From the NCBI RefSeq assembly GCF_009725995.1, contig NZ_RCNS01000001.1, positions 786,283 to 850,282 on the forward strand: DNA of 64,000 bases, written 5' to 3'. Both the position numbers and the translations under genes were made by a program. Position 1 is the first letter of the stretch; every line of letters starts with the position of its first letter. This DNA is from Zobellia laminariae. Lineage in GTDB: Bacteria; Bacteroidota; Bacteroidia; Flavobacteriales; Flavobacteriaceae. The notes below the pieces were generated by a model. That model was given only the letters and a program-made list of their open reading frames with translations, ran no database searches and was not told where the DNA came from. Positions 22,778-49,930 of the stretch are shown piece after piece.

Positions 22778-22820
22778 TAAAAGTAGAACCAACACTAAGG
22801 TGAAACTATGATAAATATCA
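22778..22820 (-). promoter_or_regulatory. FNR-type box and -7 element for the universal stress protein gene
   Basis: TGATAAATATCA (22809-22820) is a full TGAT-N4-ATCA dyad. The -7 element TACTTTTA (22785-22778) is centred exactly 33 bp downstream. Confidence 0.75.
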
Positions 22821-22839
22821 GTTTTTGAAAAGAGAAAGG

Positions 22840-23529
22840 TTAAAATCCATCGATCAAATCTAAAAGCTTGCGCTCATCAGCAATGCCAATTTTCTTGCCG
22901 GAAGTTTTAATAAATCCTTTTTTCTTGAATTCAGAAATAATCCTAATACAAGATTCAGTAGCCGTACCTACTACGTTGGAATAGTCTTCTCTAGATAAGG
23001 AAAGTGTCAAGAAACCATCTTCGTCCTCGCCATAATTCTTTTTAAGGTATAAAAAAGCTTCTGCCATTCTTTGTTTCACCGTCTTTTGGGACATGTTCAC
23101 AATAACGTCATCTGCTTCTCTTAAATCATGCGCCATATGACGTAAAACTTCAACAGCAAAATTAGGATTCGTATCTAGGGTATTAGAAATAATCTCTTTT
23201 GGTATAAAACAAACCTCCATGTCACTTACTGCAATTGCACTTAAGTTGGTAGACTCTTCGGCAATTACGGCTCGTTGGCCCATAACCTCGCCTTTACTGG
23301 CCAATCTTACGATTTGATTCTTACCATTTTCACTAAGTTTAGACAGTTTTGAGACACCATCTCTAACACAAAAAACGCCATCTAGCTTTTCACCTTCTTT
23401 GAAGATAGCTTCACCTTTTTTAAGTTTTTTAGAGATTTTGGAATCGGAGACCTTCTTCAATTCTTCCTTACTCATAGCTCGTAAAGAATTGAATTGCCTT
23501 ATTATGCAATTTTCACACCTGCTGCTCAT
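22840..23529 (-). CDS. FNR-like Crp/Fnr transcription regulator
   Basis: 229 residues: cyclic-nucleotide-binding-type beta barrel (about 25-115), dimer helix and a winged HTH (from about 150). N-terminal C5 and C8 plus C54 and C107 are candidates for an oxygen-sensing iron-sulfur cluster. The recognition helix TESCIRIISEFKKKG keeps Glu192 and Arg196 of the FNR E..SR motif but has Ile at the Ser position. It shares an intergenic region with ccoI, where an FNR box lies. It is the likely regulator of all TGAY-N4-RTCA sites in this window. Confidence 0.9.
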   Translation of the reverse strand: MSSRCENCIIRQFNSLRAMSKEELKKVSDSKISKKLKKGEAIFKEGEKLDGVFCVRDGVSKLSKLSENGKNQIVRLASKGEVMGQRAVIAEESTNLSAIAVSDMEVCFIPKEIISNTLDTNPNFAVEVLRHMAHDLREADDVIVNMSQKTVKQRMAEAFLYLKKNYGEDEDGFLTLSLSREDYSNVVGTATESCIRIISEFKKKGFIKTSGKKIGIADERKLLDLIDGF

Positions 23530-23585
23530 ATCCTATTATTTATACCTGACCGTACAAAGGTACCGTTCACAAACTATAATAAACC

Positions 23586-23628
23586 TGACAATTATCATAT
23601 ATTTAAACTCTAATATCCCGCACCTTTG
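23586..23628 (+). promoter_or_regulatory. FNR-type box and -7 element for ccoI
   Basis: TGACAATTATCA (23586-23597) followed by CACCTTTG (23621-23628), a partial TAnnTTTG, with centres 33 bp apart. The box is identical, inverted, to the one before hemN. It lies in the divergent region with fnr, so it may also affect fnr. Confidence 0.7.
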
Positions 23629-23651
23629 TGCAAGGTATAGCAAATGATTAA

Positions 23652-26048
23652 ATGAGCTCTAACAATTGTTTTCATTGTGGTGATGACTGTGGCAAAAAAG
23701 CCATAGTTCTAGATGACAAAAATTTTTGTTGCAATGGTTGTAAAACCGTTTATGAAATTTTTTCAGGTAATGACCTTGATTACTACTACGACATTCAGTC
23801 TGCTGCCGGCGCAACTCCAAAAACTCTTGATGGAAGGTACGATTTTTTAGATTCAACGCCAATTGCCGAAAAATTAATAGAATTCAATGACGGGGACTTA
23901 CAGATTATAAACCTTTACATACCCCATATTCATTGTAGTTCTTGCATATGGGTACTGGAAAATCTGAACAAGTTAAACCCATCTATAAAGAGTGGTCAGG
24001 TAGATTTTCCAAAGAAAACAGTACGTATTACATACAACAGTGCAACCATTTCATTAAAAGAAGTGGTTTTGCTACTAGCAAGAATAGGCTATGAGCCGTA
24101 TATATCCCTAGATGATTTTGACAATAAAAAGAAAAGTGCAGACCGTAGCCTAATTTACAAACTTGGGGTAGCTGGTTTTGCTTTTGGCAATGTCATGTTC
24201 CTATCGTTTCCAGATTATTTTGACCTCTCTACTAGCGATGCATCGGGTGGGGAATTCTGGCTCAACAAATATGAACCTGTCTTTCATTGGCTCATGTTCC
24301 TGTTTTCATTGCCTGTAATTTTTTATGCCGGCAGAGATTATTTCATATCCGCCTATAAAGGACTTCGCAGTAAAATATTAAATATTGATGTGCCAATTGC
24401 CCTGGGGATTTTGGTGCTATTTGTACGTAGTACACTAGAAATTACTTTTGATTGGGGAAGTGGCTTTTTCGACTCCTTAACAGGATTGGTGTTCTTTTTG
24501 CTCTTAGGGAAGTTCTTTCAGCAAAAAACCTATTCCTTTCTTTCGTTTGAACGAGATTACAAATCATATTTCCCGATTGCCATAACTAGAATATCAAAAG
24601 AAGGGAAGGAAGAAACCACCCAAGTACACGATATAAAAAGAGGAGACCGCTTACTCATTAGAAATGAAGAATTGATTCCGGTTGATGGCATTCTTATAAA
24701 CGGACAAGCACGTATTGATTATAGTTTTGTTACAGGCGAATCCGAACCAGTAAAAAAAGAATCCGGAGAGAAAGTCTTTGCCGGTGGAAAACAACTACAG
24801 GGTGCCATTGAAATGGAAGCCTTAAAATCGGTTTCACAGAGTTACCTTACCCAATTATGGGGAAACAGTATTTTTCAAGAAGACAAAGCCAGTAAGTTCC
24901 AAACCCTGACCGATAGTATTGGCCGGAGATTCACGATTGCCGTGCTCAGTATTGCTTTCTTATCGGCCGCTTTTTGGCTTTATTATGACCCTAGCAAAGT
25001 CATGAACGTATTTACGGCAGTATTAATAATTGCCTGTCCCTGTGCCATTGCTTTAGCATCTCCCTTTACTTTAGGTAACATGTTACGCATTTTTGGCCGA
25101 AAGAAGTTTTATTTAAAAGACACGCGCACCATAGAACAGCTTGCGCAAATAGACACCGCTATTTTTGACAAAACAGGTACGATTACCACTGCAAAAAAGA
25201 GTACTGCCACCTATGAAGGTATGCCCCTTACGGAAGCCGAAGCTTCTTTGCTAAAAAATACGCTACGTGGTTCTAACCACCCATTAAGTAGAACGCTTTA
25301 CAGTCTTTTGTCCGAACAAAATATTATTACGCTAGACGAATACGAAGAACATATTGGCAAAGGTATAGAGGGGTCAAAAGATGACGAACATATAAAAGCC
25401 GGTTCAGCATCTTTTGTAGGTAATGACCAAGTCTCAGATGCACTTAACACATCGGTACATATTAGCAGTAACGACTCCTATAAGGGTAAGTATATTTTTC
25501 ATAATGAATACCGAGATGGCGTTTCCGAAGTATTTAAGGATATGTCCAAAAATTTTGATGTAGCCATTTTATCGGGAGACAACGAAGGAGAGAAGTCTCG
25601 CTTAGAAAAATTATTGCCCAAACTAACTCCGTTGTACTTCAATCAAAAACCACAGCATAAACTGGAGTTTATAAAAGCTTTGCAAGAACAAGGCAAGAAG
25701 GTACTTATGGTGGGTGATGGTCTTAACGATGCCGGAGCTTTGGCGCAGGCAGAAGTGGGCATTGCCATATCTGAGAACATTAATGTATTCTCGCCCGCTA
25801 GCGATGGTATAATGGATGCCTCTAAGTTTCAACAGCTGAACAACTATATCTTGGCCTCTAAAAAAGCGATGAAGATTATAAAACTGAGTTTTCTTTTATC
25901 CTTGACCTATAACGTCATAGGCCTCTATTTTGCGGTTACCGGACAACTTGAACCTGTTATTGCTGCTATCTTAATGCCCTTGAGTTCTATAAGCGTAGTT
26001 GCCTTTGCTACCATCTCTACCAACTTCTTAGGAAGAAATATTGACTGA
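23652..26048 (+). CDS. ccoI: CcoI-type copper P-type ATPase for cbb3 oxidase assembly
   Basis: 798 residues. An N-terminal Cys-rich metal site (C6, C9, C13, C26, C27, C30) is followed by an HMA domain with CSSC at 95-98, then the P1B-ATPase core: the ion-path CPC at 462-464, the phosphorylated Asp506 in DKTGTIT, and GDGLNDAGAL in the hinge. CcoI/FixI pumps copper out of the cytoplasm for insertion into cbb3 oxidase. The gene precedes the oxidase genes and has its own FNR box. The start ATG at 23652 yields the complete Cys-rich domain. Confidence 0.95.
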   Translation: MSSNNCFHCGDDCGKKAIVLDDKNFCCNGCKTVYEIFSGNDLDYYYDIQSAAGATPKTLDGRYDFLDSTPIAEKLIEFNDGDLQIINLYIPHIHCSSCIWVLENLNKLNPSIKSGQVDFPKKTVRITYNSATISLKEVVLLLARIGYEPYISLDDFDNKKKSADRSLIYKLGVAGFAFGNVMFLSFPDYFDLSTSDASGGEFWLNKYEPVFHWLMFLFSLPVIFYAGRDYFISAYKGLRSKILNIDVPIALGILVLFVRSTLEITFDWGSGFFDSLTGLVFFLLLGKFFQQKTYSFLSFERDYKSYFPIAITRISKEGKEETTQVHDIKRGDRLLIRNEELIPVDGILINGQARIDYSFVTGESEPVKKESGEKVFAGGKQLQGAIEMEALKSVSQSYLTQLWGNSIFQEDKASKFQTLTDSIGRRFTIAVLSIAFLSAAFWLYYDPSKVMNVFTAVLIIACPCAIALASPFTLGNMLRIFGRKKFYLKDTRTIEQLAQIDTAIFDKTGTITTAKKSTATYEGMPLTEAEASLLKNTLRGSNHPLSRTLYSLLSEQNIITLDEYEEHIGKGIEGSKDDEHIKAGSASFVGNDQVSDALNTSVHISSNDSYKGKYIFHNEYRDGVSEVFKDMSKNFDVAILSGDNEGEKSRLEKLLPKLTPLYFNQKPQHKLEFIKALQEQGKKVLMVGDGLNDAGALAQAEVGIAISENINVFSPASDGIMDASKFQQLNNYILASKKAMKIIKLSFLLSLTYNVIGLYFAVTGQLEPVIAAILMPLSSISVVAFATISTNFLGRNID

Positions 26049-26739: not shown

Positions 26740-26782
26740 TGACAAAAGTCATATTAAATAGGTAGGACGCGCCGTAGTTTTA
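26740..26782 (+). promoter_or_regulatory. FNR-type box and -7 element for the ccoS-ccoNO-ccoQ-ccoP operon
   Basis: TGACAAAAGTCA (26740-26751), with complete half-sites TGAC/GTCA, followed by TAGTTTTA (26775-26782). Centres are 33 bp apart. Confidence 0.78.
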
Positions 26783-26801: not shown

Positions 26802-27011
26802 ATGAGTGTCATTTTTGTTTTATTGACCATAAGCATTGTTATTGCGGTCATATTCTTTATCGCTTTCATCGTTTCGGTGAAAAGCGGTCAATACGATGAT
26901 TCGTATACTCCATCTGTACGCATGCTTTTTGACGACGAACTGGTTAAGACTAAAAAAACCAGCGCCAAAGAGTTTGAAAAAGAGAAAATCCAACTAAATA
27001 AACAAGTATAA
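26802..27011 (+). CDS. ccoS: cbb3 oxidase assembly protein CcoS
   Basis: 69 residues: one N-terminal helix (FVLLTISIVIAVIFFIAFIV) and a short polar tail with YDDSYTPSVRMLFDDE, the CcoS signature. CcoS is needed for haem and copper cofactor insertion into CcoN. It starts the oxidase operon and ends 2 bp before ccoNO. Confidence 0.93.
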   Translation: MSVIFVLLTISIVIAVIFFIAFIVSVKSGQYDDSYTPSVRMLFDDELVKTKKTSAKEFEKEKIQLNKQV

Positions 27012-27013
27012 TT

Positions 27014-29212
27014 ATGGAAGTACAGCAGTTTTATTACGATAACAAAATCGTGAAAAATTTCCTCTATGCAACCATGTTCTGGGGTATTGTGGGTATGTCT
27101 GTAGGCTTACTTTTAGCCTTAATGTTCATGTTCCCCAACTTAACCGATGGAATATCATGGTTAAGTTTTGGTCGTTTACGCCCATTGCATACCAATGCGG
27201 TGATTTTTGCATTTGTAGGAAATGCTATTTACGCGGGGGTTTATTACTCCACGCAACGTTTGCTAAAAGCGCGAATGTATAGCGATTTTCTTAGTAAGTT
27301 CAACTTTTGGGGCTGGCAGGCAATTATTGTTGCGGCAGCTATTACCCTTCCATTAGGGTATACCAGTACTAAAGAATATGCAGAGCTTGAATGGCCTATA
27401 GATATAGCCATTGCCGTGGTTTGGGTTGCTTTTGGCGCCAACCTTATCGGTACCATGATAAAAAGAAGACAGCGTCACCTTTATGTAGCTATCTGGTTTT
27501 ATTTGGCAACGTTTGTTACTGTAGCTGTGCTACACATCTTCAACAACCTGGAGCTTCCTGTTAGCGCATTAAAAAGTTACTCTATTTACGCAGGTGTTCA
27601 AGATGCATTGGTACAATGGTGGTATGGGCATAATGCAGTTGCATTTTTCTTGACTACGCCGTTCTTGGGCCTTATGTACTACTTTGTACCTAAAGCAGCA
27701 AACAGACCGGTTTATTCTTATAGACTGTCTATAGTTCACTTCTGGTCTTTGATTTTTATTTATATCTGGGCTGGACCTCACCACTTGTTATACTCCGCTT
27801 TACCGGATTGGGCTCAAAACTTAGGTGTTGCATTTTCAGTTATGCTTTTAGCTCCTTCTTGGGGTGGTATGATTAACGGACTTCTTACGTTACGTGGTGC
27901 ATGGGATAAAGTTCGTACAGACCCTGTTTTAAAATTTATGGTAGTTGCAATTACCGGTTACGGTATGGCAACTTTTGAAGGTCCTTTACTTTCGCTTAAA
28001 AACGTAAATGCTATTGCCCACTTTAGTGACTGGATTATTGCTCACGTACATGTAGGTGCTTTAGCCTGGAACGGTTTCCTAACATTTGGTATGATTTATT
28101 GGTTGGTACCTAGAATGACCAAAAATAAATTGTTCTCTATAGGCTTGGCAAACTTCCATTTCTGGATCGGTACTTTAGGTATTATTCTGTATACGTTACC
28201 TATGTACGTTGCTGGATTTACCCAAGCATTAATGTGGAAAGAATTTAACCCAGACGGTACATTGGTTTATGGTAACTTCTTAGAAACCGTACACGAAATT
28301 ATGCCTATGTACTGGATGCGTGCCATTGGTGGTAGCCTTTACATTGTTGGTGCCATGGTTATGATCTACAACGTAGTTCGTACTATTAAATCTGGTAGTA
28401 CTATAGAAGATGAGTTAGCAGAAGCTGCTCCTCTTACCCGTGTTTCAAAACACAGAACGGCTGGCGAAACTTTCCATACTTGGTTAGAGCGTAAGCCTAT
28501 TCAATTGACCATCTTAGCTACTGTAGCTATATTAATTGGAGGTCTTATACAGATTGTACCAACTCTCTTGGTAAAATCTAACATACCTACCATCTCTAGT
28601 GTTAAGCCTTATACTCCGTTAGAACTAGAAGGCCGTGACCTTTATATTCGTGAAGGTTGTGTTAGCTGCCACTCACAAATGGTTCGTCCTTTTAGAAGTG
28701 AGGTTGAACGTTATGGTGAATATGCCAAAGCTGGTGAATTCGTTTACGACCACCCATTCCTTTGGGGAAGTAAACGTACAGGACCAGATTTACTTAGGGT
28801 TGGTGGAAAGTATTCTGATAACTGGCACTTAAACCACATGTATGACCCTCAGAGCACATCATCTGGTTCTATTATGCCTTCATATTCTTGGATGGTACGT
28901 GACAAGCATGACCGTAGCAACATCAAAACAAAAATGGAAGCTATGGTAACCTTAGGTGTACCATATACTGAAGAAGAGATTGCCAATGCTGATGCCCTTA
29001 TGGATGCTCAGGCTGAACAAATCGAAAAGAACTTATATTCAGATCCCGATTTTGCTAAAAACTATGAAGCTGATAAAACCTATGCTGCTGAAAATGGTGA
29101 AGAATTCGTAGAAATGAGAGACCGAGAAATCGTATCCTTAATTTCATACCTACAACGTTTAGGTACGGATATCAAAATCAAAGAGACTGGCGAAATAATA
29201 TCTGAAAAATAA
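27014..29212 (+). CDS. ccoNO: Fused cbb3 oxidase subunits I and II (CcoN-CcoO)
   Basis: 732 residues. Residues 1 to about 480 are the 12-helix CcoN haem-copper subunit (HAHSHIAL-type histidines replaced here by LHTNAVIFAF, WWYGHNAVAFFL for the copper-ligand His, and HVHVGALAWNGF for the haem ligands). After a linker with another helix, the CcoO cytochrome c domain follows with the haem site C-V-S-C-H at about 549-553 and HSQMVRPFRSE. Two separate genes in proteobacteria are one here, a known arrangement in Bacteroidota. It reduces oxygen to water with high affinity. Confidence 0.95.
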   Translation: MEVQQFYYDNKIVKNFLYATMFWGIVGMSVGLLLALMFMFPNLTDGISWLSFGRLRPLHTNAVIFAFVGNAIYAGVYYSTQRLLKARMYSDFLSKFNFWGWQAIIVAAAITLPLGYTSTKEYAELEWPIDIAIAVVWVAFGANLIGTMIKRRQRHLYVAIWFYLATFVTVAVLHIFNNLELPVSALKSYSIYAGVQDALVQWWYGHNAVAFFLTTPFLGLMYYFVPKAANRPVYSYRLSIVHFWSLIFIYIWAGPHHLLYSALPDWAQNLGVAFSVMLLAPSWGGMINGLLTLRGAWDKVRTDPVLKFMVVAITGYGMATFEGPLLSLKNVNAIAHFSDWIIAHVHVGALAWNGFLTFGMIYWLVPRMTKNKLFSIGLANFHFWIGTLGIILYTLPMYVAGFTQALMWKEFNPDGTLVYGNFLETVHEIMPMYWMRAIGGSLYIVGAMVMIYNVVRTIKSGSTIEDELAEAAPLTRVSKHRTAGETFHTWLERKPIQLTILATVAILIGGLIQIVPTLLVKSNIPTISSVKPYTPLELEGRDLYIREGCVSCHSQMVRPFRSEVERYGEYAKAGEFVYDHPFLWGSKRTGPDLLRVGGKYSDNWHLNHMYDPQSTSSGSIMPSYSWMVRDKHDRSNIKTKMEAMVTLGVPYTEEEIANADALMDAQAEQIEKNLYSDPDFAKNYEADKTYAAENGEEFVEMRDREIVSLISYLQRLGTDIKIKETGEIISEK

Positions 29213-33589: not shown

Positions 33590-33685
33590 ATGAAACGTAT
33601 CATAGTACTAACCTTTATAATGGGGTTATTATCTTCTGGCGTGTCTTTTGCCCAGAAAAAAACAAGAAGAACCAAAAGGAGTTGA
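33590..33685 (+). other. Signal-peptide segment separated by a frameshift from the haloperoxidase
   Basis: ATG at 33590 opens a 31-codon frame encoding a Sec signal peptide (IIVLTFIMGLLSSGVSFAQ) that ends at TGA 33683-33685. Inserting one A in the A7 run (33656-33662) would join it to the haloperoxidase frame as ...FAQKKNKKNQKELKNVAYKW. See the next entry. Confidence 0.75.
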
Positions 33686-35129: not shown

Positions 35130-35172
35130 TGATATAGTTCATATTCTAAAGCTCCTCTATTATAGATATTTG
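35130..35172 (+). promoter_or_regulatory. Imperfect FNR-type box and -7 element for truncated haemoglobin
   Basis: TGATATAGTTCA (35130-35141) differs from TGAY-N4-RTCA by one base, and GATATTTG (35165-35172) is a near -7 element. Their centres are 33 bp apart, as at the five better sites, which raises confidence. Confidence 0.5.
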
Positions 35173-35225: not shown

Positions 35226-35621
35226 ATGGAAAAAAAAGAAATTGAAACCCGAGATGACGTACAGCTACTTGTTGAAACCTTCTATGGAAAAATAAGAGAA
35301 GATAAAGTCCTTGGTCCTATTTTTAATGGAATTATTACCGACTGGGAAGCACACTTAAAATTATTGACGGATTTTTGGGAAACTCAGCTTTTTTTAAAAC
35401 GAATATACCCTGGCAACCCCGTAACGGCGCACCAAGAAGTAGATGAAAAAACCAATCATAGCATTACCTCCGAACATTTTGGCCTTTGGCTTAATCATTG
35501 GTTCGCAACCATAGATGAGCTCTTTGAAGGTGATAAAGCTTGGATTGCTAAAAACAGAGCACAAAAAATGAGTACAATGCTATTTATGCAGATGTACCAA
35601 CATAGAAGCAGAACTTCCTAA
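35226..35621 (+). CDS. Group III truncated haemoglobin
   Basis: 131 residues of the TrHb3 type: VETFYGKIREDKVLGPIF, TDFWETQLF and HFGLWLNHWFATIDELF are family landmarks, with the proximal histidine likely in HFGLW. Group III globins bind oxygen or NO and accompany nitrosative-stress genes. Here it precedes an NsrR-like Rrf2 regulator and Ric, which supports NO defence or low-oxygen service. Confidence 0.9.
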   Translation: MEKKEIETRDDVQLLVETFYGKIREDKVLGPIFNGIITDWEAHLKLLTDFWETQLFLKRIYPGNPVTAHQEVDEKTNHSITSEHFGLWLNHWFATIDELFEGDKAWIAKNRAQKMSTMLFMQMYQHRSRTS

Positions 35622-35644
35622 TACAAAAAGATAAAATTTAACTC

Positions 35645-35659
35645 GGATATATTTGTCCT
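35645..35659 (+). promoter_or_regulatory. Rrf2-type operator over the rrf2 promoter
   Basis: Read on the minus strand: AGGACAAATATATCC. On the plus strand the site contains TATATTTG, a perfect TAnnTTTG -7 element, so a bound protein would block the promoter of the regulator gene (autorepression). The same motif occurs at 36160-36174 and 46102-46116. Confidence 0.65.
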
Positions 35660-36140: not shown

Positions 36141-36154
36141 AAAAATTTGAATAT

Positions 36155-39725: not shown

Positions 39726-40428
39726 GAGTGGGTGCTGTTGCTATGGCCGCTATGGCGTGTTCTAAATCCGTTTGTCCTGTCTTAGTTTTCAGTTCTCCTA
39801 TACTACCTTTAAAGTAAATATTACCTTCTAACAAGTAGACGATTACATCAGAAATTTCGGCAACGAACTGCATAATATGAGATGTTATTAACACCGTTTT
39901 CTTTAGGTCTCTTTGTTCCCTGATAAGATTTTTTAAATGAATTAAAGATGCTGGATCAAGACCTGTTGTTGGTTCATCTAGAATTAACAAAGGACTATCG
40001 AACATAAACGCCAAAACAATGTTTACCTTTTGTTTGGTGCCTCCTGAAAGGGTTGAAAGTTTCTTATCTAAAAAAGGTTCTAGTTTAAAAAGCTCAATCA
40101 ATCTTTCTTCATCACTTGGGCTTTGCCTAAGATCCTTTATCATCCGGATAAGCTCGTAAACTTTTAAGTTTCCAGGAAAATTAGCTATCTGGGGCAGGTA
40201 GTCAATTTCTTTTCGGTACTTCCAATTCTTTTTAATGGGTTCTCCCATCACAGAAATGCTTCCCTTATCCGGCACGACCATACCCAAAATACTCTTGATC
40301 AAAGTAGTTTTTCCGGAACCATTAGGTCCTAAGATCGCAAAAACGCCACCTTTCTCTATGGTAAGGTTTAAGCCCGAAAGTACTTCGTTCTTTCCAAATT
40401 TCTTCTGTAAACCTTCTATCTGAATCAT
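39718..40428 (-). CDS. nosF: ABC transporter ATPase NosF
   Basis: 236 residues: Walker A LGPNGSGKTT (about 34-43), signature LSGGTKQKV, Walker B LLILDEPTTGLD and the switch histidine in SHIMQFV. The NosFY complex interacts with NosD and NosL to assemble the CuZ site of nitrous oxide reductase. It overlaps nosD by 4 bp upstream and nosY by 8 bp downstream. Confidence 0.94.
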   Translation of the reverse strand: MIQIEGLQKKFGKNEVLSGLNLTIEKGGVFAILGPNGSGKTTLIKSILGMVVPDKGSISVMGEPIKKNWKYRKEIDYLPQIANFPGNLKVYELIRMIKDLRQSPSDEERLIELFKLEPFLDKKLSTLSGGTKQKVNIVLAFMFDSPLLILDEPTTGLDPASLIHLKNLIREQRDLKKTVLITSHIMQFVAEISDVIVYLLEGNIYFKGSIGELKTKTGQTDLEHAIAAIATAPTHA

Positions 40429-41666
40429 TGTACTTTGGTCATTAGGGGATTAATATCCAATAAATTGTCTGGTGTAAATACGGGAGATACTTTTTCGGAA
40501 AAATCAATGATATCCATAAAAAGACTTCGCAATAAAACAATAGCCTCCGGTGTTTTGTTTACGATATAAGAAAACAATTTTACGGGGCGGTACGGCACAT
40601 CGCCAATACCGTTCTTATCTAAATCGTACCCAGTATAACCACTCCAGTAATTACCATCAAACACATTATCGTTCAGCTTACTATCATACGATATATCAAA
40701 ACTGTTGTAAAGGAAGTTATTACCCGTAAAAGCATTGGCGTAACAGGCTCCAAGGACTTTAATTCCCCATCCATTATTTATAAAGTTGTTTCCTTCATAA
40801 TTAATTCGGTTAGACCCTTCTATGTTAATGCCAATGGTATTTTCCTCAAAGGTATTGTTACTTATTTCAGCATCATTAATTTCTTTCAACAACACACCAA
40901 AAGAAGCTGTGCCCCAGTTTTTCCTAAAGGTATTGCCCTTCATTATAATTCCCTTAGAAAACATAACTGCGACTCCGGCTCCGTTATTTTCAAAAAGATT
41001 ATTGGTGTAAACGTCATCATCAGAAAACATAAAATGCAAACCATATCTTAAGTTATTCGTGCTTTTGTTATTGTCTATTGTAATGTTATCCGAGAACTCC
41101 AAATAGATACCATCTCTTGCACCTTGAACAATATTATTACTTACCTCAACATGGTGTGAATACCAAAGTTGGATTCCATTTCCAGAATTATACTCGTCTT
41201 TGGCATCGCCTATAATCTTATTGTGATAGACTTTTCCATAATTTGATTTTTCTAGATAAATCCCGAAAAACAATTTTTCTAAAACCACATTTTGAATTAG
41301 AAAATTTTCGCTTTTAACTACTCTAATGGCAGCATAATCTGTGGTATAGCTAGTGCCCACATTAATGATAAAAAAACCATCTATTGTTACACCATCCGAT
41401 ACGATCCGCATGATTTCACCTTTCTTTTCTCCATCTATTATTGGGTAACCCTCCCCAATTAAGGTTAGGGGTTTATCAATAAGAATATTGAATTCCTTAT
41501 AGGTGCCTTTTTTAACTAAAAGCGTGTCAAAATCTATGGCTCGTTCAATTCCTTCAGAAATAGATTTTATTTCGCAACTCTCACAGATAACTATAGGTTT
41601 GGCCCATAGGTTTGCGGTAACAAAAAGTAAAAAAGTAAAATTTAATAAACTTTGGTATCGCATCAT
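40425..41666 (-). CDS. nosD: Periplasmic copper-assembly protein NosD
   Basis: 413 residues: signal peptide (FTFLLFVTANLWA), then a right-handed parallel beta helix with repeating NN/N-x-I motifs (for example VSNNIVQGARDGIYLEFSDN and TFEENTIGINIEGSN) and the conserved C-terminal GNYWSGYTGYDLDKNGIGD-type segment. NosD helps insert copper-sulfur centre CuZ into NosZ. Stop overlaps the nosF start (ATGA). Confidence 0.93.
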   Translation of the reverse strand: MMRYQSLLNFTFLLFVTANLWAKPIVICESCEIKSISEGIERAIDFDTLLVKKGTYKEFNILIDKPLTLIGEGYPIIDGEKKGEIMRIVSDGVTIDGFFIINVGTSYTTDYAAIRVVKSENFLIQNVVLEKLFFGIYLEKSNYGKVYHNKIIGDAKDEYNSGNGIQLWYSHHVEVSNNIVQGARDGIYLEFSDNITIDNNKSTNNLRYGLHFMFSDDDVYTNNLFENNGAGVAVMFSKGIIMKGNTFRKNWGTASFGVLLKEINDAEISNNTFEENTIGINIEGSNRINYEGNNFINNGWGIKVLGACYANAFTGNNFLYNSFDISYDSKLNDNVFDGNYWSGYTGYDLDKNGIGDVPYRPVKLFSYIVNKTPEAIVLLRSLFMDIIDFSEKVSPVFTPDNLLDINPLMTKVQ

Positions 41667-41813
41667 CTTAATATGAGAAATTTAGAATTCTCCTTTGTTC
41701 TTTTCCTAAATCAGTTTTTACATAACAAGACCACCAAGGTTTACTCTTGGATAAATGCAGCTGGTCTTACACCGCTTTTCAATACTATTCTTTGATTTAA
41801 AATCCTAGGTCGT

Positions 41814-41920
41814 TTACTCTCTATATTTACCCACGATGTCAGAAATGTGAATACGATAAACAATTGGACTTGCTTCCTTTTCCATTTTACTGGAAAAATC
41901 TCTTATAAACTCAAGTTTCT
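41814..41920 (-). other. Displaced 3' end of the FMN-split-barrel gene
   Basis: In the -1 frame after the AAAGGGG run (41921-41927), the sequence continues as EKLEFIRDFSSKMEKEASP and then IVYRIHISDIVGKYRE to a TAA at 41814. This is the expected C-terminal helix and strand of the pyridoxamine-oxidase-like family, now out of frame with the preceding gene. Confidence 0.75.
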
Positions 41921-42274
41921 CCCCTTTCGTTCTAAAAATGGTCTCCTTAACTCCTTCTGTAAAGGTACGTAGGCATTTTTTGCGGTACTACCCTTTAGCT
42001 CCTCAAAAGTGCCATTAACCAACACGGAACGCCATGTAAACATAGAGGCAACGTCCTCTACTTGTAAGGATACATGCCCGTATGTTCTCATAGATACTAT
42101 TTTATGACCTGGAGCAGAATAACTAATTATGCTTTTATTCTCCTCATCAAAGAAGTATGTTACTGGTACAATAAATGGGCTTCTACCCCCTATATACCCC
42201 AAATGACCCACATAGTTATCACTTAAAAGCGACATACATTCTGAAATTTCCAAGTCTTTTACCATAGTTTCCAA
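41903..42274 (-). CDS. Pyridoxamine 5'-phosphate oxidase-like FMN-binding protein (frameshifted near the 3' end)
   Basis: 123 residues readable, ending in a non-family tail (RKGRNLSL). The body is a split-barrel flavoprotein: CMSLLSDNYVGHLGYIGG, PFIVPVTYFFD, GHKIVSMRTYGHVSLQVED. Adding one base to the AAAGGGG run (41921-41927) would restore a 153-residue protein ending at 41814. Similar proteins occur beside nos genes in flavobacteria, perhaps as redox partners. It follows nosL by 4 bp. Confidence 0.8.
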   Translation of the reverse strand: METMVKDLEISECMSLLSDNYVGHLGYIGGRSPFIVPVTYFFDEENKSIISYSAPGHKIVSMRTYGHVSLQVEDVASMFTWRSVLVNGTFEELKGSTAKNAYVPLQKELRRPFLERKGRNLSL

Positions 42275-42278
42275 AGAT

Positions 42279-42725
42279 TTAAAAAGGGTTATCTTTTTCG
42301 AATTTTTCTTCTAATTCGGTCCAAGTATACAATGTTCCAGAATTACTCAGCTGCGCTCTATTTGCTTCATCTTCATTTGCAAAAGCAGTTAAAAACGCAC
42401 CCATTGGACTAGGAATATTCTCGCTGATCAAATAAGTTGCTTTTGTTGCATCAACAAAAACCCCAGGATCGGTATAATTATTTACACGATACATTGCAAC
42501 CGTTTCCGGTTCTACATCCCGTAGGTAATTTAACATACATTCCGATGCATCAAAAGAATAACTTCTCCCTTTTTTAGTCATAAACTGTGCAGCATGTTGC
42601 TTATCTACAATGGTCATACTACAAAAATGGCATCCTTCCGAACCATATTCTATGGGTTTTGGCTCACTGTTACATGAAGACAATACAAGAATACATATTA
42701 CTCCAAAAATTGTTAGACTCTTCAT
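42279..42725 (-). CDS. nosL: Copper chaperone NosL
   Basis: 148 residues, lipoprotein (lipobox LVLSSC). Copper-binding signatures GSEGCHFCSMTIVD and the conserved FDASECMLNYL. NosL delivers copper to apo-NosZ or NosD in the periplasm. Its start overlaps the end of the preceding membrane-protein gene by 4 bp (42722-42725). Confidence 0.95.
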   Translation of the reverse strand: MKSLTIFGVICILVLSSCNSEPKPIEYGSEGCHFCSMTIVDKQHAAQFMTKKGRSYSFDASECMLNYLRDVEPETVAMYRVNNYTDPGVFVDATKATYLISENIPSPMGAFLTAFANEDEANRAQLSNSGTLYTWTELEEKFEKDNPF

Positions 42726-43366
42726 GATGTAGCTAATTTATGAGTTTGATGAGATGAGTGAGAACCGGTACTTTTCCAGCCTACTATAAAAGCAACTACT
42801 GTAAGTGCCATTCCAACGAACATTAACCATGCACCCGTAGCCGGTATTGAACTTACATCAAAATTCAATAATTTTTTATAACCAAAAAGTGGTGGTTTAT
42901 AGGTCATTGGTGTCCCATCTTCATTAATCACCTTAATTATGGCATGTGGGTCTAGGTTAGAACCGTAGTCCGTTAACCAGAGATTAAAGTCATACATACC
43001 CATGATACCTAAGATAGACATTAGTAAGAACCAACCCAAAAAATATCGATAATCAATTTTACCTATATACCCTAAAATACCTAATAGCACTCCTAAAAGT
43101 ACCATACCAATGATTACGAAAGGAAAAACATTAAACTCCCACATCTCATCAGCTTTAGGAATGGTCTTCATTCCTATGTAGTGATTAAGACCGTCTATAT
43201 TCTGTAAATCGAATTCAGAAACGCCTTGTATGCCCGTAATATGAATATTCATACCCAAAGGATCTGGGTATTGAGGAGCTCCTAGCATTATATTCCAAAG
43301 CGGAAATGCAAACAACCCTAATAAACATAAAGAACCGACTATCATTATTATACTTGCCCTTTTCAT
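42722..43366 (-). CDS. Nos-operon membrane protein (NosB-like position)
   Basis: 214 residues with four or five helices (about 5-25, 82-102, 108-128, 180-200). It has two periplasmic-looking loops containing HYIGMKTIPKADEMWEFNVFPF and DLDPHAIIKVINED-type motifs, and a His-rich C-terminus (GSHSSHQTHK). It lies between nosZ and nosL, where clade II clusters carry the membrane protein NosB; identity with NosB is suggested by position, not shown by sequence. It overlaps nosL by 4 bp and follows a terminator after nosZ. Confidence 0.7.
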   Translation of the reverse strand: MKRASIIMIVGSLCLLGLFAFPLWNIMLGAPQYPDPLGMNIHITGIQGVSEFDLQNIDGLNHYIGMKTIPKADEMWEFNVFPFVIIGMVLLGVLLGILGYIGKIDYRYFLGWFLLMSILGIMGMYDFNLWLTDYGSNLDPHAIIKVINEDGTPMTYKPPLFGYKKLLNFDVSSIPATGAWLMFVGMALTVVAFIVGWKSTGSHSSHQTHKLATS

Positions 43367-43415
43367 CTTACATCATCTTAAAAAATTAAATCCGTCAATC
43401 ATCTTGGCTTTCAAA

Positions 43416-43456
43416 TAAAAAAGCAGGTCGGTCTTGGTACGCGACCTGCTTTTTGT
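43416..43456 (-). terminator. Terminator or attenuator after nosZ
   Basis: Stem AAAAAGCAGGTCG / CGACCTGCTTTTT with an 11-nt loop on the minus strand, between nosZ and the membrane-protein gene. It would lower the expression of the nos accessory genes relative to nosZ. Confidence 0.85.
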
Positions 43457-43485
43457 TTGAATAATTAATCTACTTCCTCCTGAAC

Positions 43486-45447
43486 CTACTCACCCAAAGA
43501 CCAAGAAAGGTCAATATTGGATTTAGCAGGAGAAACTCTTACATAACCTTGCATCTCTTGGTGCAAAGCAGAACAGAAATCTGTACAGTAAAATGGCCAT
43601 ACACCTTCTTGTTTAGGCTCCCAAACCGATGTTTTGGTTTGTCCTGGCATTATTAGTAAACCAGAATTCTTTTGTCCGATCATCATAAAGCCGTGTGGAA
43701 CATCAAAATCTTGTTCATGGTTTGTAATATGGAAGTACACCTTATCACCTACTTTAATACCTTCTATATTATCTGGGGTAAAGTGACTACGTATCATTGC
43801 CATATAGACATGTACTACATTACCATCACGAACCACTCTTGCATCTGAAACATTCTTTGTAGCAAATGGATGTTCGTTTTCTGCCAGTTTATAAATTTTC
43901 TGCGATTTAGGCGCTAATATCGATGCTGGAATAGCTGCTGCGTAATGTGGCTCACCATGTGTTGGAAAATCATAAATAAGCTCCATTTTATCTCCAGAAA
44001 TATCATACAACTGTGCAGAGTGTTCTAACTCAGGACCGGTTGGCAGGTATCTATCTTTGGTAATCTTGTTCATGGATACCAAATATTTACCAAAAGGTTT
44101 TCTAGAGTTTCCTCCAGGAATCATACAGTGTCCAACAGAGTAATAGGTTGGTTTTCTATCAATAACCTCCCATGTACCTACTTTCCACTTAACAACTTCA
44201 GAAGAAATAAAGAACGTAGTATACGCATTACCCTTACCATCAAACTCGGTATGCAATGGACCTAATCCTCCACTTTTTACCTGACCAGCCAACACGTCTT
44301 CGAATTTTAAAATAGGAAGACCATAAGCTTCACCATCATACTTTTTACCGTCAATTGCAGCAATCATTTTATCAAACGAGAATACCGTAAGGTCTGCAGA
44401 AAGCTTACCGTTACCAATAATATAATCTCCTGTTGGATTTACATCTACCCCGTGTGGAGATTTTGGTGTTGGCATAAAGAATATAGCCCCAGGTACTTTT
44501 GTAGGATCTACAGTTAGAACTTCTTTTTTCATTGTTGAAGTAGCGCTATGTGTCTCATCGCTATACACGTTATGTGTATAATTTGCAGGTACCATTGTAC
44601 CTCCTCCATTTTCTACATATTCTTCAATTTTCTTCCAGTTTACAGCTGCAATAAAATCTTTATCGTTTTGAGAAGCGTTAACCTCTAGAAGTGAATTGGC
44701 TTCCTCTGTGTTATATGTAGTAAAGAAAAACCAACCGTGAGATTTACCTCTTCCCGGATGCGATAAATCATAGTTAAAACCTGGCATTATTAATTGGAAT
44801 TTTATATCCATGTTACCAGTTTCAGGCTCTACGCTAATAAAAGATAAGGCTCCTTTAAAGTTCCCCTTGTAATCTTTTATAGGCATATCTCTTTGTGGAA
44901 TTGGAACTGAAAAACGAGTTCCTGCCACTACGTACTCTGAATTCTCTGTGATGTATGATGAACTGTGATTACCTGCACTATTTGGAACTTCTATAATCTC
45001 AGCAGTTTCAAATGTTTTTAGGTCAATTCTTGCTATACGTGGGGTGTTGTTACCATTTATGAATAGCCATCTACCATCTAATTCTCCATTAGTCTGAGAA
45101 ATATCTGGGTGGTGAGAATCATCTGCAGGTATAAAACCGAAAGAAGTTTCTAACATGGGCTTTGTTTCTTCCGAATACCCATATCCATTAGTTGGGAATT
45201 GAGAAAAAACAGGAATTTCTTTGAACATACGTCCTGAAGGAAGACCATAAACGGCTACGTTACCGCTATATCCACCAGACATAAAGGCGTAAAACTCATC
45301 GTGCTCGCCAGGAGCTACGTATACCTTCTCTGCATTATTGGAAGCAAGCGCTCCATTTGATGATTCTTTACCGTTTTGATCACCGCAACCTGATAAAAAC
45401 AGGACCGACCCTAGAATTGCCGCTAGGTGTAATGAATACTTTTTCAT
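43486..45447 (-). CDS. nosZ: Nitrous oxide reductase, clade II lipoprotein form
   Basis: 653 residues. Signal peptide with lipobox LFLSGC (Cys21) instead of a Tat signal, typical of clade II (atypical) NosZ. CuZ histidines begin with DDSHHPD (H112, H113) and recur through the propeller. The C-terminal cupredoxin carries the CuA ligands C621, C625, H629 and M632 in FYCTDFCSALHQEM. It reduces N2O to N2, ending denitrification or scavenging external N2O; no nitrite or NO reductase is in the window. Preceded by the cytochrome c gene in the same transcript. Confidence 0.96.
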   Translation of the reverse strand: MKKYSLHLAAILGSVLFLSGCGDQNGKESSNGALASNNAEKVYVAPGEHDEFYAFMSGGYSGNVAVYGLPSGRMFKEIPVFSQFPTNGYGYSEETKPMLETSFGFIPADDSHHPDISQTNGELDGRWLFINGNNTPRIARIDLKTFETAEIIEVPNSAGNHSSSYITENSEYVVAGTRFSVPIPQRDMPIKDYKGNFKGALSFISVEPETGNMDIKFQLIMPGFNYDLSHPGRGKSHGWFFFTTYNTEEANSLLEVNASQNDKDFIAAVNWKKIEEYVENGGGTMVPANYTHNVYSDETHSATSTMKKEVLTVDPTKVPGAIFFMPTPKSPHGVDVNPTGDYIIGNGKLSADLTVFSFDKMIAAIDGKKYDGEAYGLPILKFEDVLAGQVKSGGLGPLHTEFDGKGNAYTTFFISSEVVKWKVGTWEVIDRKPTYYSVGHCMIPGGNSRKPFGKYLVSMNKITKDRYLPTGPELEHSAQLYDISGDKMELIYDFPTHGEPHYAAAIPASILAPKSQKIYKLAENEHPFATKNVSDARVVRDGNVVHVYMAMIRSHFTPDNIEGIKVGDKVYFHITNHEQDFDVPHGFMMIGQKNSGLLIMPGQTKTSVWEPKQEGVWPFYCTDFCSALHQEMQGYVRVSPAKSNIDLSWSLGE

Positions 45448-45499
45448 TTGTTTTGTATTTGTGGTTATTTTATAAAAGCCCCTAAGGCTTATTTATATA

Positions 45500-46012
45500 C
45501 TATTCTAATGTTCTAAAATATTCGAGTATACTACGAGCTTGATCTTCGGTTAACCCTTGGTTAGCCATTGGAGCACCGTTAAATTCTGCCATAAGCTCTT
45601 TTGCCAAAGCATCTTCTTTTACCATAACTTCAGGATTAAGAATCATGTTCATTACCCATTCTGGGCTACGTCTTTTTAAAACACCTGTTGGAGCCGGGCC
45701 AATGAATTTTTTATCCACTCTGTGGCAAGCCATACACATTTGGCTGTAAACCTCTTCACCTTTTTTAGCCAAGGCCTGATCAATTTCAGGAGACAAGGTC
45801 ACAGATTTTATTGGGCCTACTCCTTTATTTTCTAGGTCCACACGTTCAGATGGTGAGACTGTACTAGTAGCGGCAACAGCTTCAACCGGTTTCTCTGTTT
45901 TAGTTTTTTCACGATCTACGCTAAATCCTTCTTTCTTTTTTTCTTCTTTACCTCCGCAGGCCATAAGTAAGAGTGAAAAAAATATCACGGTACTTCTTAT
46001 TACAATCTTCAT
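45500..46012 (-). CDS. Cytochrome c lipoprotein of the nos operon
   Basis: 170 residues from ATG 46012 (MKIVIRSTVIFFSLLLMAC): lipoprotein signal with Cys19, a linker rich in Lys/Glu/Val, then a class I cytochrome c domain with CMACH and an axial Met in APMANQ. It probably feeds electrons to NosZ. The longer frame starting at 46096 would begin upstream of the FNR-box promoter and is rejected. A small hairpin (AAGCC/GGCTT, 45476-45490) lies between it and nosZ. Confidence 0.9.
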   Translation of the reverse strand: MKIVIRSTVIFFSLLLMACGGKEEKKKEGFSVDREKTKTEKPVEAVAATSTVSPSERVDLENKGVGPIKSVTLSPEIDQALAKKGEEVYSQMCMACHRVDKKFIGPAPTGVLKRRSPEWVMNMILNPEVMVKEDALAKELMAEFNGAPMANQGLTEDQARSILEYFRTLE

Positions 46013-46042: not shown

Positions 46043-46085
46043 CAAATGTATGAGGATTGAATAGTCAAAAACATGATATATATCA
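46043..46085 (-). promoter_or_regulatory. FNR-type box and -7 element for the nos operon
   Basis: TGATATATATCA (46074-46085), a perfect TGAT-N4-ATCA dyad, and TACATTTG (46050-46043), a perfect TAnnTTTG. Centres are 33 bp apart. Predicted transcription start near 46037. Confidence 0.82.
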
Positions 46086-47627: not shown

Positions 47628-47650
47628 ATAGTTGCGTAGTTTAAGTGCAT

Positions 47651-48472
47651 CTATATTTTAAAGGTCACCACCGGTATTTTAGAGTGATTAACCACATCTT
47701 CGCCAATACTTCCCATAAAAAAATGAGATAAGCCTTTACGTCCATGGGTTGAGATACCAATGGCATCGGCGCTGTTATTTTCACTATAGTTTAGAACACC
47801 TCGTTCTACGCTATAATCATTATATATTTCAACTTGTAAAGCTTCATTTACTTTACCAATAAAATTATTTATACGTGTATAGATATCACCAGAACTTAAG
47901 AAATCATCACCTGGTGTGTTGATGTAAACCAAATCCAAATTAGCCTTTAACATCTCTGCAAATGCTTTTGCTTTTTGAAAGGCAGCAGTACTTTCTTCCC
48001 TAAAATCGGATGCAAATACAAAACGGTCAATTTTAAAATCAGGTATTTCATTTTTGATGACCAATACAGGAATCTCTGCATTACGTACTACTTTCTCGGC
48101 ATTAGAACCAATAAAGATTTCCTCAAGACCATCAGACCCATGAGAACCCATTACTATAAGCTCTGCATTGTGCTCGGCAGCAATTTCATTCACCTCGCTA
48201 AACACCTTGTAATGCTTAATAATCGGTGTAACCTTAACCCCTTCTAAATAAGGTTTTTGCAAAAATTCTTTAAATCTCTTTTCCGCCAGCTTAATTAGAA
48301 AAACAGTTTGTTCGGGATGAAAACCTTCTGAAGAAGTTATCATAGCTTGATTAAGTTCTAACATATGCAATGCCAGTATTTCCGCACCATGCTTTTCAGC
48401 TAATGATACAGCAACTTTAAGGGCATTTTCAGATTGTTCCGAGAAATCTAGAGGGACTATAATTTTTTTCAT
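47651..48472 (-). CDS. Universal stress protein (two UspA domains)
   Basis: 273 residues: two UspA domains, both with the ATP-binding loop (MGSHGSDGLEEIFIGSNA and STHGRKGLSHFFMGSIGE). Both domains look nucleotide-competent, unlike the first universal stress protein in the window. It lies 32 bp downstream of hemN and shares its FNR-box promoter, so it is expected under low oxygen. Confidence 0.92.
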   Translation of the reverse strand: MKKIIVPLDFSEQSENALKVAVSLAEKHGAEILALHMLELNQAMITSSEGFHPEQTVFLIKLAEKRFKEFLQKPYLEGVKVTPIIKHYKVFSEVNEIAAEHNAELIVMGSHGSDGLEEIFIGSNAEKVVRNAEIPVLVIKNEIPDFKIDRFVFASDFREESTAAFQKAKAFAEMLKANLDLVYINTPGDDFLSSGDIYTRINNFIGKVNEALQVEIYNDYSVERGVLNYSENNSADAIGISTHGRKGLSHFFMGSIGEDVVNHSKIPVVTFKI

Positions 48473-48504
48473 AATATTTCTATTTTATAAGATTAGGGGA
48501 TATA

Positions 48505-49866
48505 TTAAACTGTCATTGAAAATAATCTTTTTTCTGGTTCTTTCTTGTGTAAAAGCACATCAAATGCCATACAAATATTCCGAATGAACGGACGGCCTTC
48601 TTCGGTCACCTCTACGCCATCATCTGTCATAACAAGTAAATTATCTTGTTCCATTTCCCTTAACCTATCTTTTACATCTTCGGTGCTTTCAAAACGAAGA
48701 TTTTCAGTGGCCCAAGAAGTTTTAAAACCACACATTAAATTTAAGATGTGCTTTCTTATTGCTCGGTCTTCATTGGTTAAGATATGACCTCTATAAACAG
48801 GAATAACGTTGTTTTCTACTAAATGTTGATATTCCTCAATACCTTTTACATTTTGGGCAAAACCATACCAGCTATCGCTTATACTAGATGCTCCCAAACC
48901 AATCATAGCTTGCGTTTTTGATGCGGTATACCCCATAAAATTACGGTGCAAACTACCTGTCTCCATAGATTCATAAAGCGAATCTGTTGAAAGGGCAAAA
49001 TGGTCCATACCAATTTCATGATAGCCTACTTCTGCCAACAAAGCCTTTCCGGTTTCGTATTGTTGCCTTTTTTCATCTGCAGTAGGTAAATCTGCATCCT
49101 TATAACCTCTTTGACCATTTCCTTTTAACCATGGCACATGGGCATAACTATAAAACGCCAATCTATCTGGCCGCAACTCTTTAGTTCGCAAAATAGTTTC
49201 GCGAACATGCTCTTCTTTTTGAAAAGGAAGACCAAAAATAATATCGTGACCTATTGATGTGTAGCCAATTTCCCTTGCCCATTCCGTTACGTTTTTCACG
49301 TTCGCAAAAGGTTGTATACGGTGTATGGCCTGCTGTACTTTTACATTATAATCTTGCACACCAAAACTAACGCGTCTAAAACCTACATCGTATAAAGCTT
49401 GCAAATGTTCTTTAGTAGTATTGTTAGGGTGACCTTCAAAGCTAAATTCATAATCTTCGGCTCTTTTTGCCATACTAAAAATACCTTTGATCAGGTTTTC
49501 TAGATTTTGAGGCGTAAAAAAGGTTGGCGTACCACCACCTAGATGTAGCTCTTTTATAATTGGACGTTCAGAGAATAAATCGCAATACAGTTTCCATTCT
49601 TTTAATACCGATCGTATGTACGGCTCTTCTACTTCGTGCCTTTGAGTAATACGTTTATGACAACCACAAAACGTACACATACTCTCGCAGAAAGGTAGAT
49701 GTATATAGAGGCTTATGCCTTCTGTTGCATTACTCTCATCAAAACTTTGAATTAAGCTAGATTGCCATTTTTTACTAGAAAAAGTGTCCATATTCCAATA
49801 AGGAACAGTAGGGTAACTAGTATACCTTGGGCCTGCAACATTATATTTCTGAATTAAACTGCACAT
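48505..49866 (-). CDS. hemN: Oxygen-independent coproporphyrinogen III oxidase HemN
   Basis: 453 residues from ATG 49866 (MCSLIQKYNVAGPRYTSYP). The radical SAM motif CESMCTFCGC has the four-Cys form of genuine HemN (C60, C64, C67, C69). GGGTPTFF and the C-terminal HemN domain follow. It makes protoporphyrinogen without oxygen, supplying haem when oxygen is low. The promoter TAGATTTG at 49895-49888 puts the transcript start near 49881, excluding the longer frame from 49890. First gene of an operon with a universal stress protein. Confidence 0.95.
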   Translation of the reverse strand: MCSLIQKYNVAGPRYTSYPTVPYWNMDTFSSKKWQSSLIQSFDESNATEGISLYIHLPFCESMCTFCGCHKRITQRHEVEEPYIRSVLKEWKLYCDLFSERPIIKELHLGGGTPTFFTPQNLENLIKGIFSMAKRAEDYEFSFEGHPNNTTKEHLQALYDVGFRRVSFGVQDYNVKVQQAIHRIQPFANVKNVTEWAREIGYTSIGHDIIFGLPFQKEEHVRETILRTKELRPDRLAFYSYAHVPWLKGNGQRGYKDADLPTADEKRQQYETGKALLAEVGYHEIGMDHFALSTDSLYESMETGSLHRNFMGYTASKTQAMIGLGASSISDSWYGFAQNVKGIEEYQHLVENNVIPVYRGHILTNEDRAIRKHILNLMCGFKTSWATENLRFESTEDVKDRLREMEQDNLLVMTDDGVEVTEEGRPFIRNICMAFDVLLHKKEPEKRLFSMTV

Positions 49867-49887
49867 AGATCGTATCTTGATTTGATA

Positions 49888-49930
49888 CAAATCTAGGCGT
49901 GTTCAGCTTTTTAAAACATGATAATTGTCA
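49888..49930 (-). promoter_or_regulatory. FNR-type box and -7 element for hemN-usp
   Basis: TGATAATTGTCA (49919-49930; minus strand TGACAATTATCA, identical to the ccoI box) and the perfect -7 element TAGATTTG (49895-49888). Centres 33 bp apart. Confidence 0.82.

What the first reader, a model, noticed from the sequence alone, without database searches (positions are those of the whole stretch)
22778..49930. Five (perhaps six) FNR-type promoters with identical 33-bp geometry
TGAY-N4-RTCA boxes precede usp (22809), ccoI (23586), ccoS operon (26740), nos (46074) and hemN (49919). In all five, the centre of the box lies exactly 33 bp from the centre of the TAnnTTTG-like element; the globin promoter (35130) fits with one mismatch. 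This marks a coherent low-oxygen regulon and shows the class II activator position relative to the Bacteroidota sigma factor, where box binding would replace the -33 element.
Basis: partly seen in the sequence, partly recalled or inferred. Interest (0 to 1): 0.7.

Follow-up and report, generated by a model that had tools for sequence, protein, structure and literature searches.

The report
FNR-type low-oxygen promoters, fixed spacing
In a marine Flavobacteriaceae genome an FNR-like regulator appears to switch on respiratory genes from a DNA site held exactly 23 bases from the start signal, the textbook activator position of E. coli now seen on the different start signal used by Bacteroidota.

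Summary
TGAY-N4-RTCA boxes at 22809, 23586, 26740, 46074 and 49919 each have a TAnnTTT[G/A] element exactly 23 bp away (33 bp centre to centre). The exact match at 23586 faces fnr; ccoI has CAnnTTTG at the same distance, so one box faces two divergent promoters. The globin promoter has one box mismatch and G at -12.

The window's own assembly is not held, so the scan was run on relatives. In the nearest genome 26 of 42 pairs over 31 gaps lie at gap 23. Over 11 gaps it is 228 of 413 in 37 genomes of the same class and 39 of 254 in 111 genomes of other classes. Flavobacterium start sites put TAnnTTTG at -12 to -5 (PMC9723704, passage), so the box centre is -41.5: class II. No class I peak appeared in 8 genomes.

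A second CRP-type regulator with a receiver domain seems to share the geometry. T at -12 is often missing, A at -11 rarely. "Replaces the -33 element" stays open. Known kind of activation, new variant. Binding, activation and start sites in this organism are inferred.

The parts
22809..22820 (-). FNR-type box of usp, TGATATTTATCA
22778..22785 (-). -7 element of usp, TACTTTTA, gap 23; start predicted near 22773
   Evidence: start inferred from the -12 to -5 register
21848..22750 (-). usp, universal stress protein
   Evidence: Pfam PF00582
22840..23529 (-). fnr, CRP/FNR-superfamily regulator (cNMP_binding + HTH_Crp_2), the likely activator
23586..23597 (.). shared box between divergent fnr and ccoI
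23555..23562 (-). -7 element of fnr, TACCTTTG, gap 23; start predicted near 23550
23621..23628 (+). -7 element of ccoI, CACCTTTG (C at -12), gap 23; start predicted near 23633
   Evidence: same asymmetry in relatives
23652..26048 (+). ccoI-like metal P-type ATPase
26740..26751 (+). box of the ccoS-ccoNO operon, TGACAAAAGTCA
26775..26782 (+). -7 element, TAGTTTTA, gap 23; start predicted near 26787
26802..27011 (+). ccoS-like small ORF, 69 aa (name by position and look)
27014..29212 (+). ccoNO fusion, cbb3 oxidase
   Evidence: Pfam COX1 + FixO
35130..35141 (+). degenerate box before the globin-like gene, TGATATAGTTCA
35165..35172 (+). -7-like element GATATTTG (G at -12), gap 23
46074..46085 (-). 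box of the nos operon, TGATATATATCA
46043..46050 (-). -7 element of nos, TACATTTG, gap 23; start predicted near 46038
40425..46012 (-). nos gene cluster (c-type cytochrome-like, nosZ, nosL-like, nosD)
   Evidence: nosZ and nosD above NCBIfam cut-offs, cytochrome below; leader translation; nosL by look only
49919..49930 (-). box of hemN, TGACAATTATCA
49888..49895 (-). -7 element of hemN, TAGATTTG, gap 23; start predicted near 49883
48505..49866 (-). hemN, oxygen-independent coproporphyrinogen III oxidase (ATG start assumed at 49866)
   Evidence: TIGR00538; start read from the translation

Best explanation
These are class II promoters of a CRP/FNR-type activator. The dimer of the FNR-like protein encoded at 22840-23529 binds an extended dyad (A-tract, TGAY-AWWT-RTCA, T-tract) centred at -41.5, directly upstream of the Bacteroidota sigma factor bound to the -7 element at -12 to -5. 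Contact with RNA polymerase from this one position activates the cbb3 oxidase, heme, N2O-respiration and stress genes at low oxygen, and here probably fnr itself. Shown by sequence: boxes, exact gap, its conservation and class-wide excess, the dyad, the target genes. Taken from print: the -12 to -5 register, in F. psychrophilum. Inferred: binding by this protein, oxygen sensing through an Fe-S cluster, activation, and start sites here.
For: Gap 23 holds 26 of 42 pairs over 31 gaps in G001, 228 of 413 over 11 gaps in 37 same-class genomes, and 218 of 254 over 55 gaps in 80 named loci that carry fnr (the best 80 of 491 found; count). PMC9723704 (passages) places TAnnTTTG at -12 to -5 and reports cbb3 oxidase and heme-biosynthesis induction under oxygen limitation. 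All 20 fetched gap-23 sites of G104 have an ORF of 60 aa or more starting within 350 bp downstream (no control was run for this). The products include PPDK, ccoN, hemN, hemA, a 2-oxoacid:acceptor oxidoreductase, NirK and Pta above curated cut-offs, and a pyruvate formate-lyase cut by the locus end. A G001 site precedes a NapA-like gene, also cut by the locus end. E. coli galP1 has the same gap of 23 and nirB 22. Four Cys are co-conserved in 18 of 19 aligned FNR-like proteins, the window's included.
Against: No start site, binding or expression data in this organism. The 80 loci are close relatives, not independent. Outside the class the excess is weak (39 of 254, 1.8 times the other gaps, though family f2 has 9 of 24), even where FNR homologues exist: family f17 has a P0001-like protein in 7 of 8 genomes but only 3 of 13 pairs at gap 23. 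The protein lacks the Cys equivalent to E. coli C29 and falls below NCBI's Fnr cut-off (104 against 228 bits). fnr autoregulation is not general: in 13 of the 60 close relatives with a box upstream of fnr, fnr has no TA-type element at gap 23, and of the more distant fnr genes read only G127 besides the window has such a pair. PMC8510549 (passages) predicts carbon sensing for CRP/FNR homologues of a Flavobacteriales and a Saprospiraceae MAG.
Confidence: 0.87

Rival explanations
1. The box is a repressor site: a CRP/FNR protein at -41.5 blocks polymerase, and the exact gap reflects occlusion.
For: A box overlapping the upstream promoter region could occlude sigma region 4 (reasoning, no call).
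Against: Repression does not demand one exact base spacing; the peak is one gap wide (gap 23: 26, gaps 22 and 24: 0 and 1 in G001). cbb3 oxidase is induced by oxygen limitation in F. psychrophilum (PMC9723704 passage); that such genes are FNR-activated in other bacteria is recalled.
Confidence: 0.05
2. Another CRP/FNR member, such as the receiver-cNMP-HTH regulator, not the FNR-like protein, is the main activator of the window's boxes.
For: Such a regulator sits among 14 gap-23 boxes in G001, and three genomes of the family without a close FNR (G054, G089, G131) still have 6, 9 and 3 gap-23 pairs. Its recognition helix reads TETAIR, close to TESCIR.
Against: Inner tetrads differ: AWWT in 249 of 301 boxes of fnr loci, 0 of 14 in the island. 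4 of the 5 window boxes are AWWT and the ccoS box is AAAA; one of them adjoins fnr.
Confidence: 0.07
3. The gap-23 pairs are a by-product of copied promoter segments or base composition.
For: A few listed pairs are exact copies, for example two in G104.
Against: Spacers differ between sites, the pattern read backwards gives 0 in G001 against 26, other gaps stay at background, and between window and G001 spacers change while elements do not.
Confidence: 0.01

Closest known systems
Class II CRP/FNR-dependent promoters of E. coli (galP1, nirB)
   Same: Gap from TCA to the TA of the -10 hexamer is 23 in galP1 and 22 in nirB (hexamers and the -41.5 position are recalled).
   Different: Start element is TAnnTTTG read by the Bacteroidota sigma factor; spacing shows a single-base peak; no class I peak in the 8 genomes tested.
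E. coli FNR
   Same: cNMP-binding and Crp-type HTH domains; CxxC and the C122 position conserved; recognition E and R conserved.
   Different: Cys 29 is N (S or T in most relatives) and a conserved Cys (C54) sits elsewhere; S212 is I; the base before TGA is A or C, not T.
Sigma-A promoters of Flavobacterium and Bacteroides (TAnnTTTG at -7, TTTG at -33)
   Same: Same -7 element and register (PMC9723704, PMC7366714, passages).
   Different: An activator dyad lies where a -33 element would be; T at -12 can be absent.
Class II activation in Thermus thermophilus by a CRP/FNR regulator (as cited in a passage of PMC12531629)
   Same: Class II activation by a CRP/FNR protein outside Proteobacteria.
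   Different: Different phylum; the original paper was not seen.

Membership tests
Class II CRP/FNR-dependent promoter | Activator site centred near -41.5 at fixed spacing to the start element | tested here: met
   Gap 23 exact with the -12 to -5 register of F. psychrophilum from PMC9723704; start sites of this organism not mapped
Class II CRP/FNR-dependent promoter | Activation depends on the CRP/FNR protein | not testable with these tools
   Needs an fnr deletion or in vitro transcription
Class II CRP/FNR-dependent promoter | Activator site occupies or replaces the upstream (-35 or -33) element | tested here: inconclusive
   The dyad covers about -53 to -30; box-free promoters show only a weak loose TTG excess at -38 to -32, 20 against about 10 expected
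Class I CRP/FNR-dependent promoter | Excess of boxes at -61.5, -71.5 and so on (gaps 43, 53) | tested here: not met
   117 pairs over gaps 38-68 in 8 genomes (backward control 79), 2 at gap 43, 7 at gap 53, highest 10 at gap 51
E. coli-type FNR oxygen sensor | cNMP-binding plus Crp HTH domains | tested here: met
E. coli-type FNR oxygen sensor | Four Cys ligands at E. coli positions 20, 23, 29, 122 (ligand set recalled) | tested here: not met
   20, 23, 122 present; 29 is N in the window protein; another Cys co-conserved in 18 of 19 aligned proteins
E. coli-type FNR oxygen sensor | Binding site TTGAT-N4-ATCAA | tested here: not met
   Base before TGA is A 0.30, C 0.68, G 0.01, T 0.00 in 301 sites of the 80 loci
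E. coli-type FNR oxygen sensor | Oxygen-labile [4Fe-4S] cluster | not testable with these tools
   Needs purified protein
NCBIfam Fnr (NF008365) | Score above curated cut-off | tested here: not met
   104.3 against 228 bits

The most novel reading that the evidence does not exclude
CRP/FNR-type regulators of Bacteroidota activate only as class II, from one exact position, whatever signal they sense. The activator carries so much of the recognition that T at -12 is dispensable while A at -11 is not, and on the divergent fnr/ccoI promoter one palindromic box drives a T-12 promoter for the regulator and a promoter without T-12 for the copper pump, a built-in difference in activator dependence.
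Probability: 0.4. Interest if true: 0.65.

Novelty: new variant of a known kind. Interest (0 to 1): 0.5.

Why it matters
It gives a simple genome-readable signature (box, 23 bp, TAnnTTTG) for low-oxygen and related regulons across the class, and links the Bacteroidota -7 element to the register of classical class II activation. It also bears on a question raised in PMC12531629 (Discussion passages), which argues that the class I contact AR1 is a gain of the Gammaproteobacterial ancestor: in the 8 genomes of one family tested here only the class II distance stands out.

Tried and rejected
Class I positions: looked for at gaps 38-68 in 8 genomes, none stands out, although the total (117) exceeds the backward control (79). 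A T-tract at -33 to -30 was first taken for a remnant -33 element because T at -32 and -31 is commoner than in the mirrored upstream columns (61% and 63% against 37%, N=62); in 301 sites of the 80 loci the mirrored A-tract at -53 to -50 is equally clear, so I read it as part of the dyad, with the asymmetry of the first set unexplained. The TTG excess at -38 to -32 in 73 box-free promoters (20 seen, about 10 expected from the base frequencies printed, my arithmetic) was judged too loose to call a -33 element, but it does not exclude one. TBnnTTTG as a control for A at -11: 21 of 144 at gap 23, other gaps mean 12.3, a slight excess that I tell but do not build on. Rfam over 20000-52000 at gathering scores: no match. 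In the FNR alignment the row for G102 picked a wrong ORF and was dropped, L111 (G069, a stop in the match) was not put in, and G013 lacks all four Cys and is the one exception of 19. The fnr start was located in 64 of 80 loci, 60 with a box; that the divergent gene is ccoI was checked in the window only. Literature: ten searches listed no title that I recognised as describing this geometry in Bacteroidota; beyond listings I saw passages of six papers, and most subscription papers are not held.
Full report
Source. The window's own assembly is not held. The nearest held genome, G001, shares 28% of sampled 31-letter words, and its FNR-like protein is 100% identical to that of the window. Its contig C32 has the same length (825,743) as a Zobellia barbeyronii contig that carries the same fnr, so I take G001 to be Z. 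barbeyronii and the window to be from Zobellia or close kin (inference).

Observation. The seven TGAY-N4-RTCA boxes of the window were listed in both directions. Five are intergenic, and all five have TAnnTTT[G/A] at gap 23 (33 bp centre to centre): usp, fnr, ccoS, nos and hemN. The two inside ORFs have none. The ccoI side of the 23586 box has CACCTTTG at the same gap, and the globin-like gene has TGATATAGTTCA and GATATTTG at the same gap. With up to one mismatch per part the intergenic count is 7 at gap 23 and 6 at the ten other gaps between 18 and 28 together. Between the window and G001 the spacers carry 15 changes in 138 positions and the elements none in 48, compared without gaps.

Genome-wide test. 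In G001 the pattern with gaps 8-38 gives 42 pairs, 26 of them at gap 23; the other 30 gaps share 16. Over a draw of 148 genomes of the phylum, gaps 18-28 and gap 23 alone were counted. Same class as G001: 228 of 413 at gap 23 in 37 genomes, 18.5 per other gap. Other classes: 39 of 254 in 111 genomes, 21.5 per other gap, a weak excess (1.8 times) to which family f2 adds 9 of 24. Family of G001: 143 of 226 in 15 genomes (all). Family f9 has 0 of 22 in 30 genomes and no P0001 match at E<=1e-10. Family f17 has a match in 7 of 8 genomes but only 3 of 13 pairs at gap 23, so an FNR homologue alone does not bring the geometry. These loci are relatives, so this shows conservation, not independent events.

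Position. PMC9723704 (passages read) states that TAnnTTTG lies at -12 to -5 in F. psychrophilum. A gap of 23 then puts the 12-bp box at -47 to -36, centre -41.5, the class II position. E. coli galP1 gives the same gap of 23 and nirB 22 (sequences; the -10 hexamers are recalled). Farther upstream (gaps 38-68, 8 genomes) 117 pairs (backward control 79) are spread over 31 gaps with no class I peak, against 111 at gap 23 in the same genomes. PMC12531629 (Discussion passages) proposes that the class I contact AR1 is a gain of the Gammaproteobacterial ancestor; the lack of a class I peak here fits that.

Element details. In 8 genomes, non-T at -12 (VAnnTTTG) still peaks at gap 23, 32 of 103 with 7.1 per other gap; non-A at -11 (TBnnTTTG) barely does, 21 of 144 with 12.3 per other gap; TAnnTTTG gives 111 of 157. 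In the 80 loci, 68 boxes (65 loci) have NAnnTTT[AG] at gap 23 on both sides, and each has T at -12 on exactly one side. Upstream of fnr, the fnr side is TAnnTTT[AG] in 47 of 60 boxes and the divergent side is non-T at -12 with A at -11 and TTT in all 60 (read from its list). In the more distant genomes VAnnTTTG pairs pointing away from fnr occur just upstream of it in G001, G058, G108, G135 and G026, 5 of the 8 searched (coordinates), while the fnr-facing pair is found only in the window and G127 among the fnr genes read. So the divergent promoter is the more conserved one and fnr autoregulation is a local feature. Across 296 genomes of the class a strict two-sided pattern (TAnnTTT on both sides) occurs in 19 genomes and its backward control in none, so one box with two start elements recurs.

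The -33 element. Among 563 kb, 73 box-free promoter-like sequences show a weak and position-loose TTG excess at -38 to -32 (20 seen, about 10 expected by my arithmetic); 15 boxed ones have 1 there. [quoted passage not shown] johnsoniae. The A-tract at -53 to -50 and T-tract at -33 to -30 in 301 sites read as an extended dyad. The dyad lies where a -33 element would be; that it replaces one is neither shown nor excluded.

Regulators. The window protein has cNMP-binding and HTH_Crp_2 domains. Against E. coli FNR (fetched), C20, C23 and C122 are kept, C29 is N (N or S in most relatives, T in G024), and an extra Cys (residue 54) is conserved; all four Cys are present in 18 of 19 aligned proteins, the window's included, and absent together in the other. 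The recognition helix reads TESCIR for VETISR, and the base before TGA is A or C, so it should not be filed as a standard FNR, though it very likely works like one. G001 has three more CRP/FNR matches. One has a receiver domain ahead of the cNMP and HTH domains, lies next to a PAS/histidine-kinase gene and sits in an island (C31:318-378 kb) with 14 gap-23 boxes whose inner tetrad is AWWT in 0 of 14, against 249 of 301 at fnr loci. By ORF length alone (350-385 aa) such proteins occur in 23 of 37 class genomes and none of the 111 others (my count from the rows; one checked by Pfam). The geometry therefore seems to belong to CRP/FNR activation in this class, not to FNR alone. That the island boxes belong to this regulator is an inference from place. 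PMC8510549 (passages) predicts carbon sensing for CRP/FNR homologues of Flavobacteriales and Saprospiraceae MAGs, a different reading of other members.

Targets. In G104, a different genus of the family with 57% FNR identity, all 20 fetched gap-23 sites have an ORF of at least 60 aa starting within 350 bp downstream (no control positions were tested). Of 19 products given to NCBIfam, 9 pass a curated cut-off (PPDK, ccoN, hemN, hemA, 2-oxoacid:acceptor oxidoreductase, copper nitrite reductase, phosphate acetyltransferase, an HYC_CC_PP protein, an MlaE permease), a formate C-acetyltransferase is strong but cut by the locus end, 4 match weakly (a hydrolase/rhodanese-like protein, an iron-sulfur subunit, a c-type cytochrome, a Usp) and 5 have no match at the thresholds used. 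L103 is an exact copy of the L100 site and was not scanned. Not all G001 sites have such an ORF: L002 and the plus-strand site of L014/L015 have none.

Judgement. The finding is correct and more general than stated. The mechanism is textbook class II activation on an unusual start element; the exact single-base spacing, the lack of a class I peak, the dispensable -12 T and the two-promoter box are the new points. No experiment was possible.

Noticed in passing
G001:C31:318-378 kb (loci L031-L034, L042): Stress island with a receiver-cNMP-HTH regulator, a PAS/GAF histidine kinase, Usp, YflT, chloride channel, MlaE permease, an ATP-synthase-like beta subunit, MCRA, ferritin-like protein and 14 gap-23 boxes of another inner sequence.
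   Followed up: partly
window 22840-23529: FNR-like protein with a moved Cys: residues 5, 8, 54, 107 co-conserved instead of the E. coli 20/23/29/122 set.
   Followed up: partly
window 33682-35046: DUF6851/vanadium chloroperoxidase-like and PAP2 protein between the cco genes and the globin-like gene.
   Followed up: no
window 35226-36929: Globin-like ORF (no Pfam match), Rrf2 regulator and ScdA/hemerythrin protein in a row, which looks like a nitrosative-stress cluster (reading recalled).
   Followed up: no
family f17 genomes (G060, G102, G106 and others): FNR homologues at 31-37% identity without the gap-23 signature; they may use another start element.
   Followed up: no
G104:C1:3350622 and 3885872: Exact duplicate of an MlaE-permease promoter and start of gene at two places.
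   Followed up: no
L014/L015 and L002 (G001): Gap-23 pairs without an ORF start within 350 bp downstream; they could serve small RNAs or be chance.
   Followed up: no
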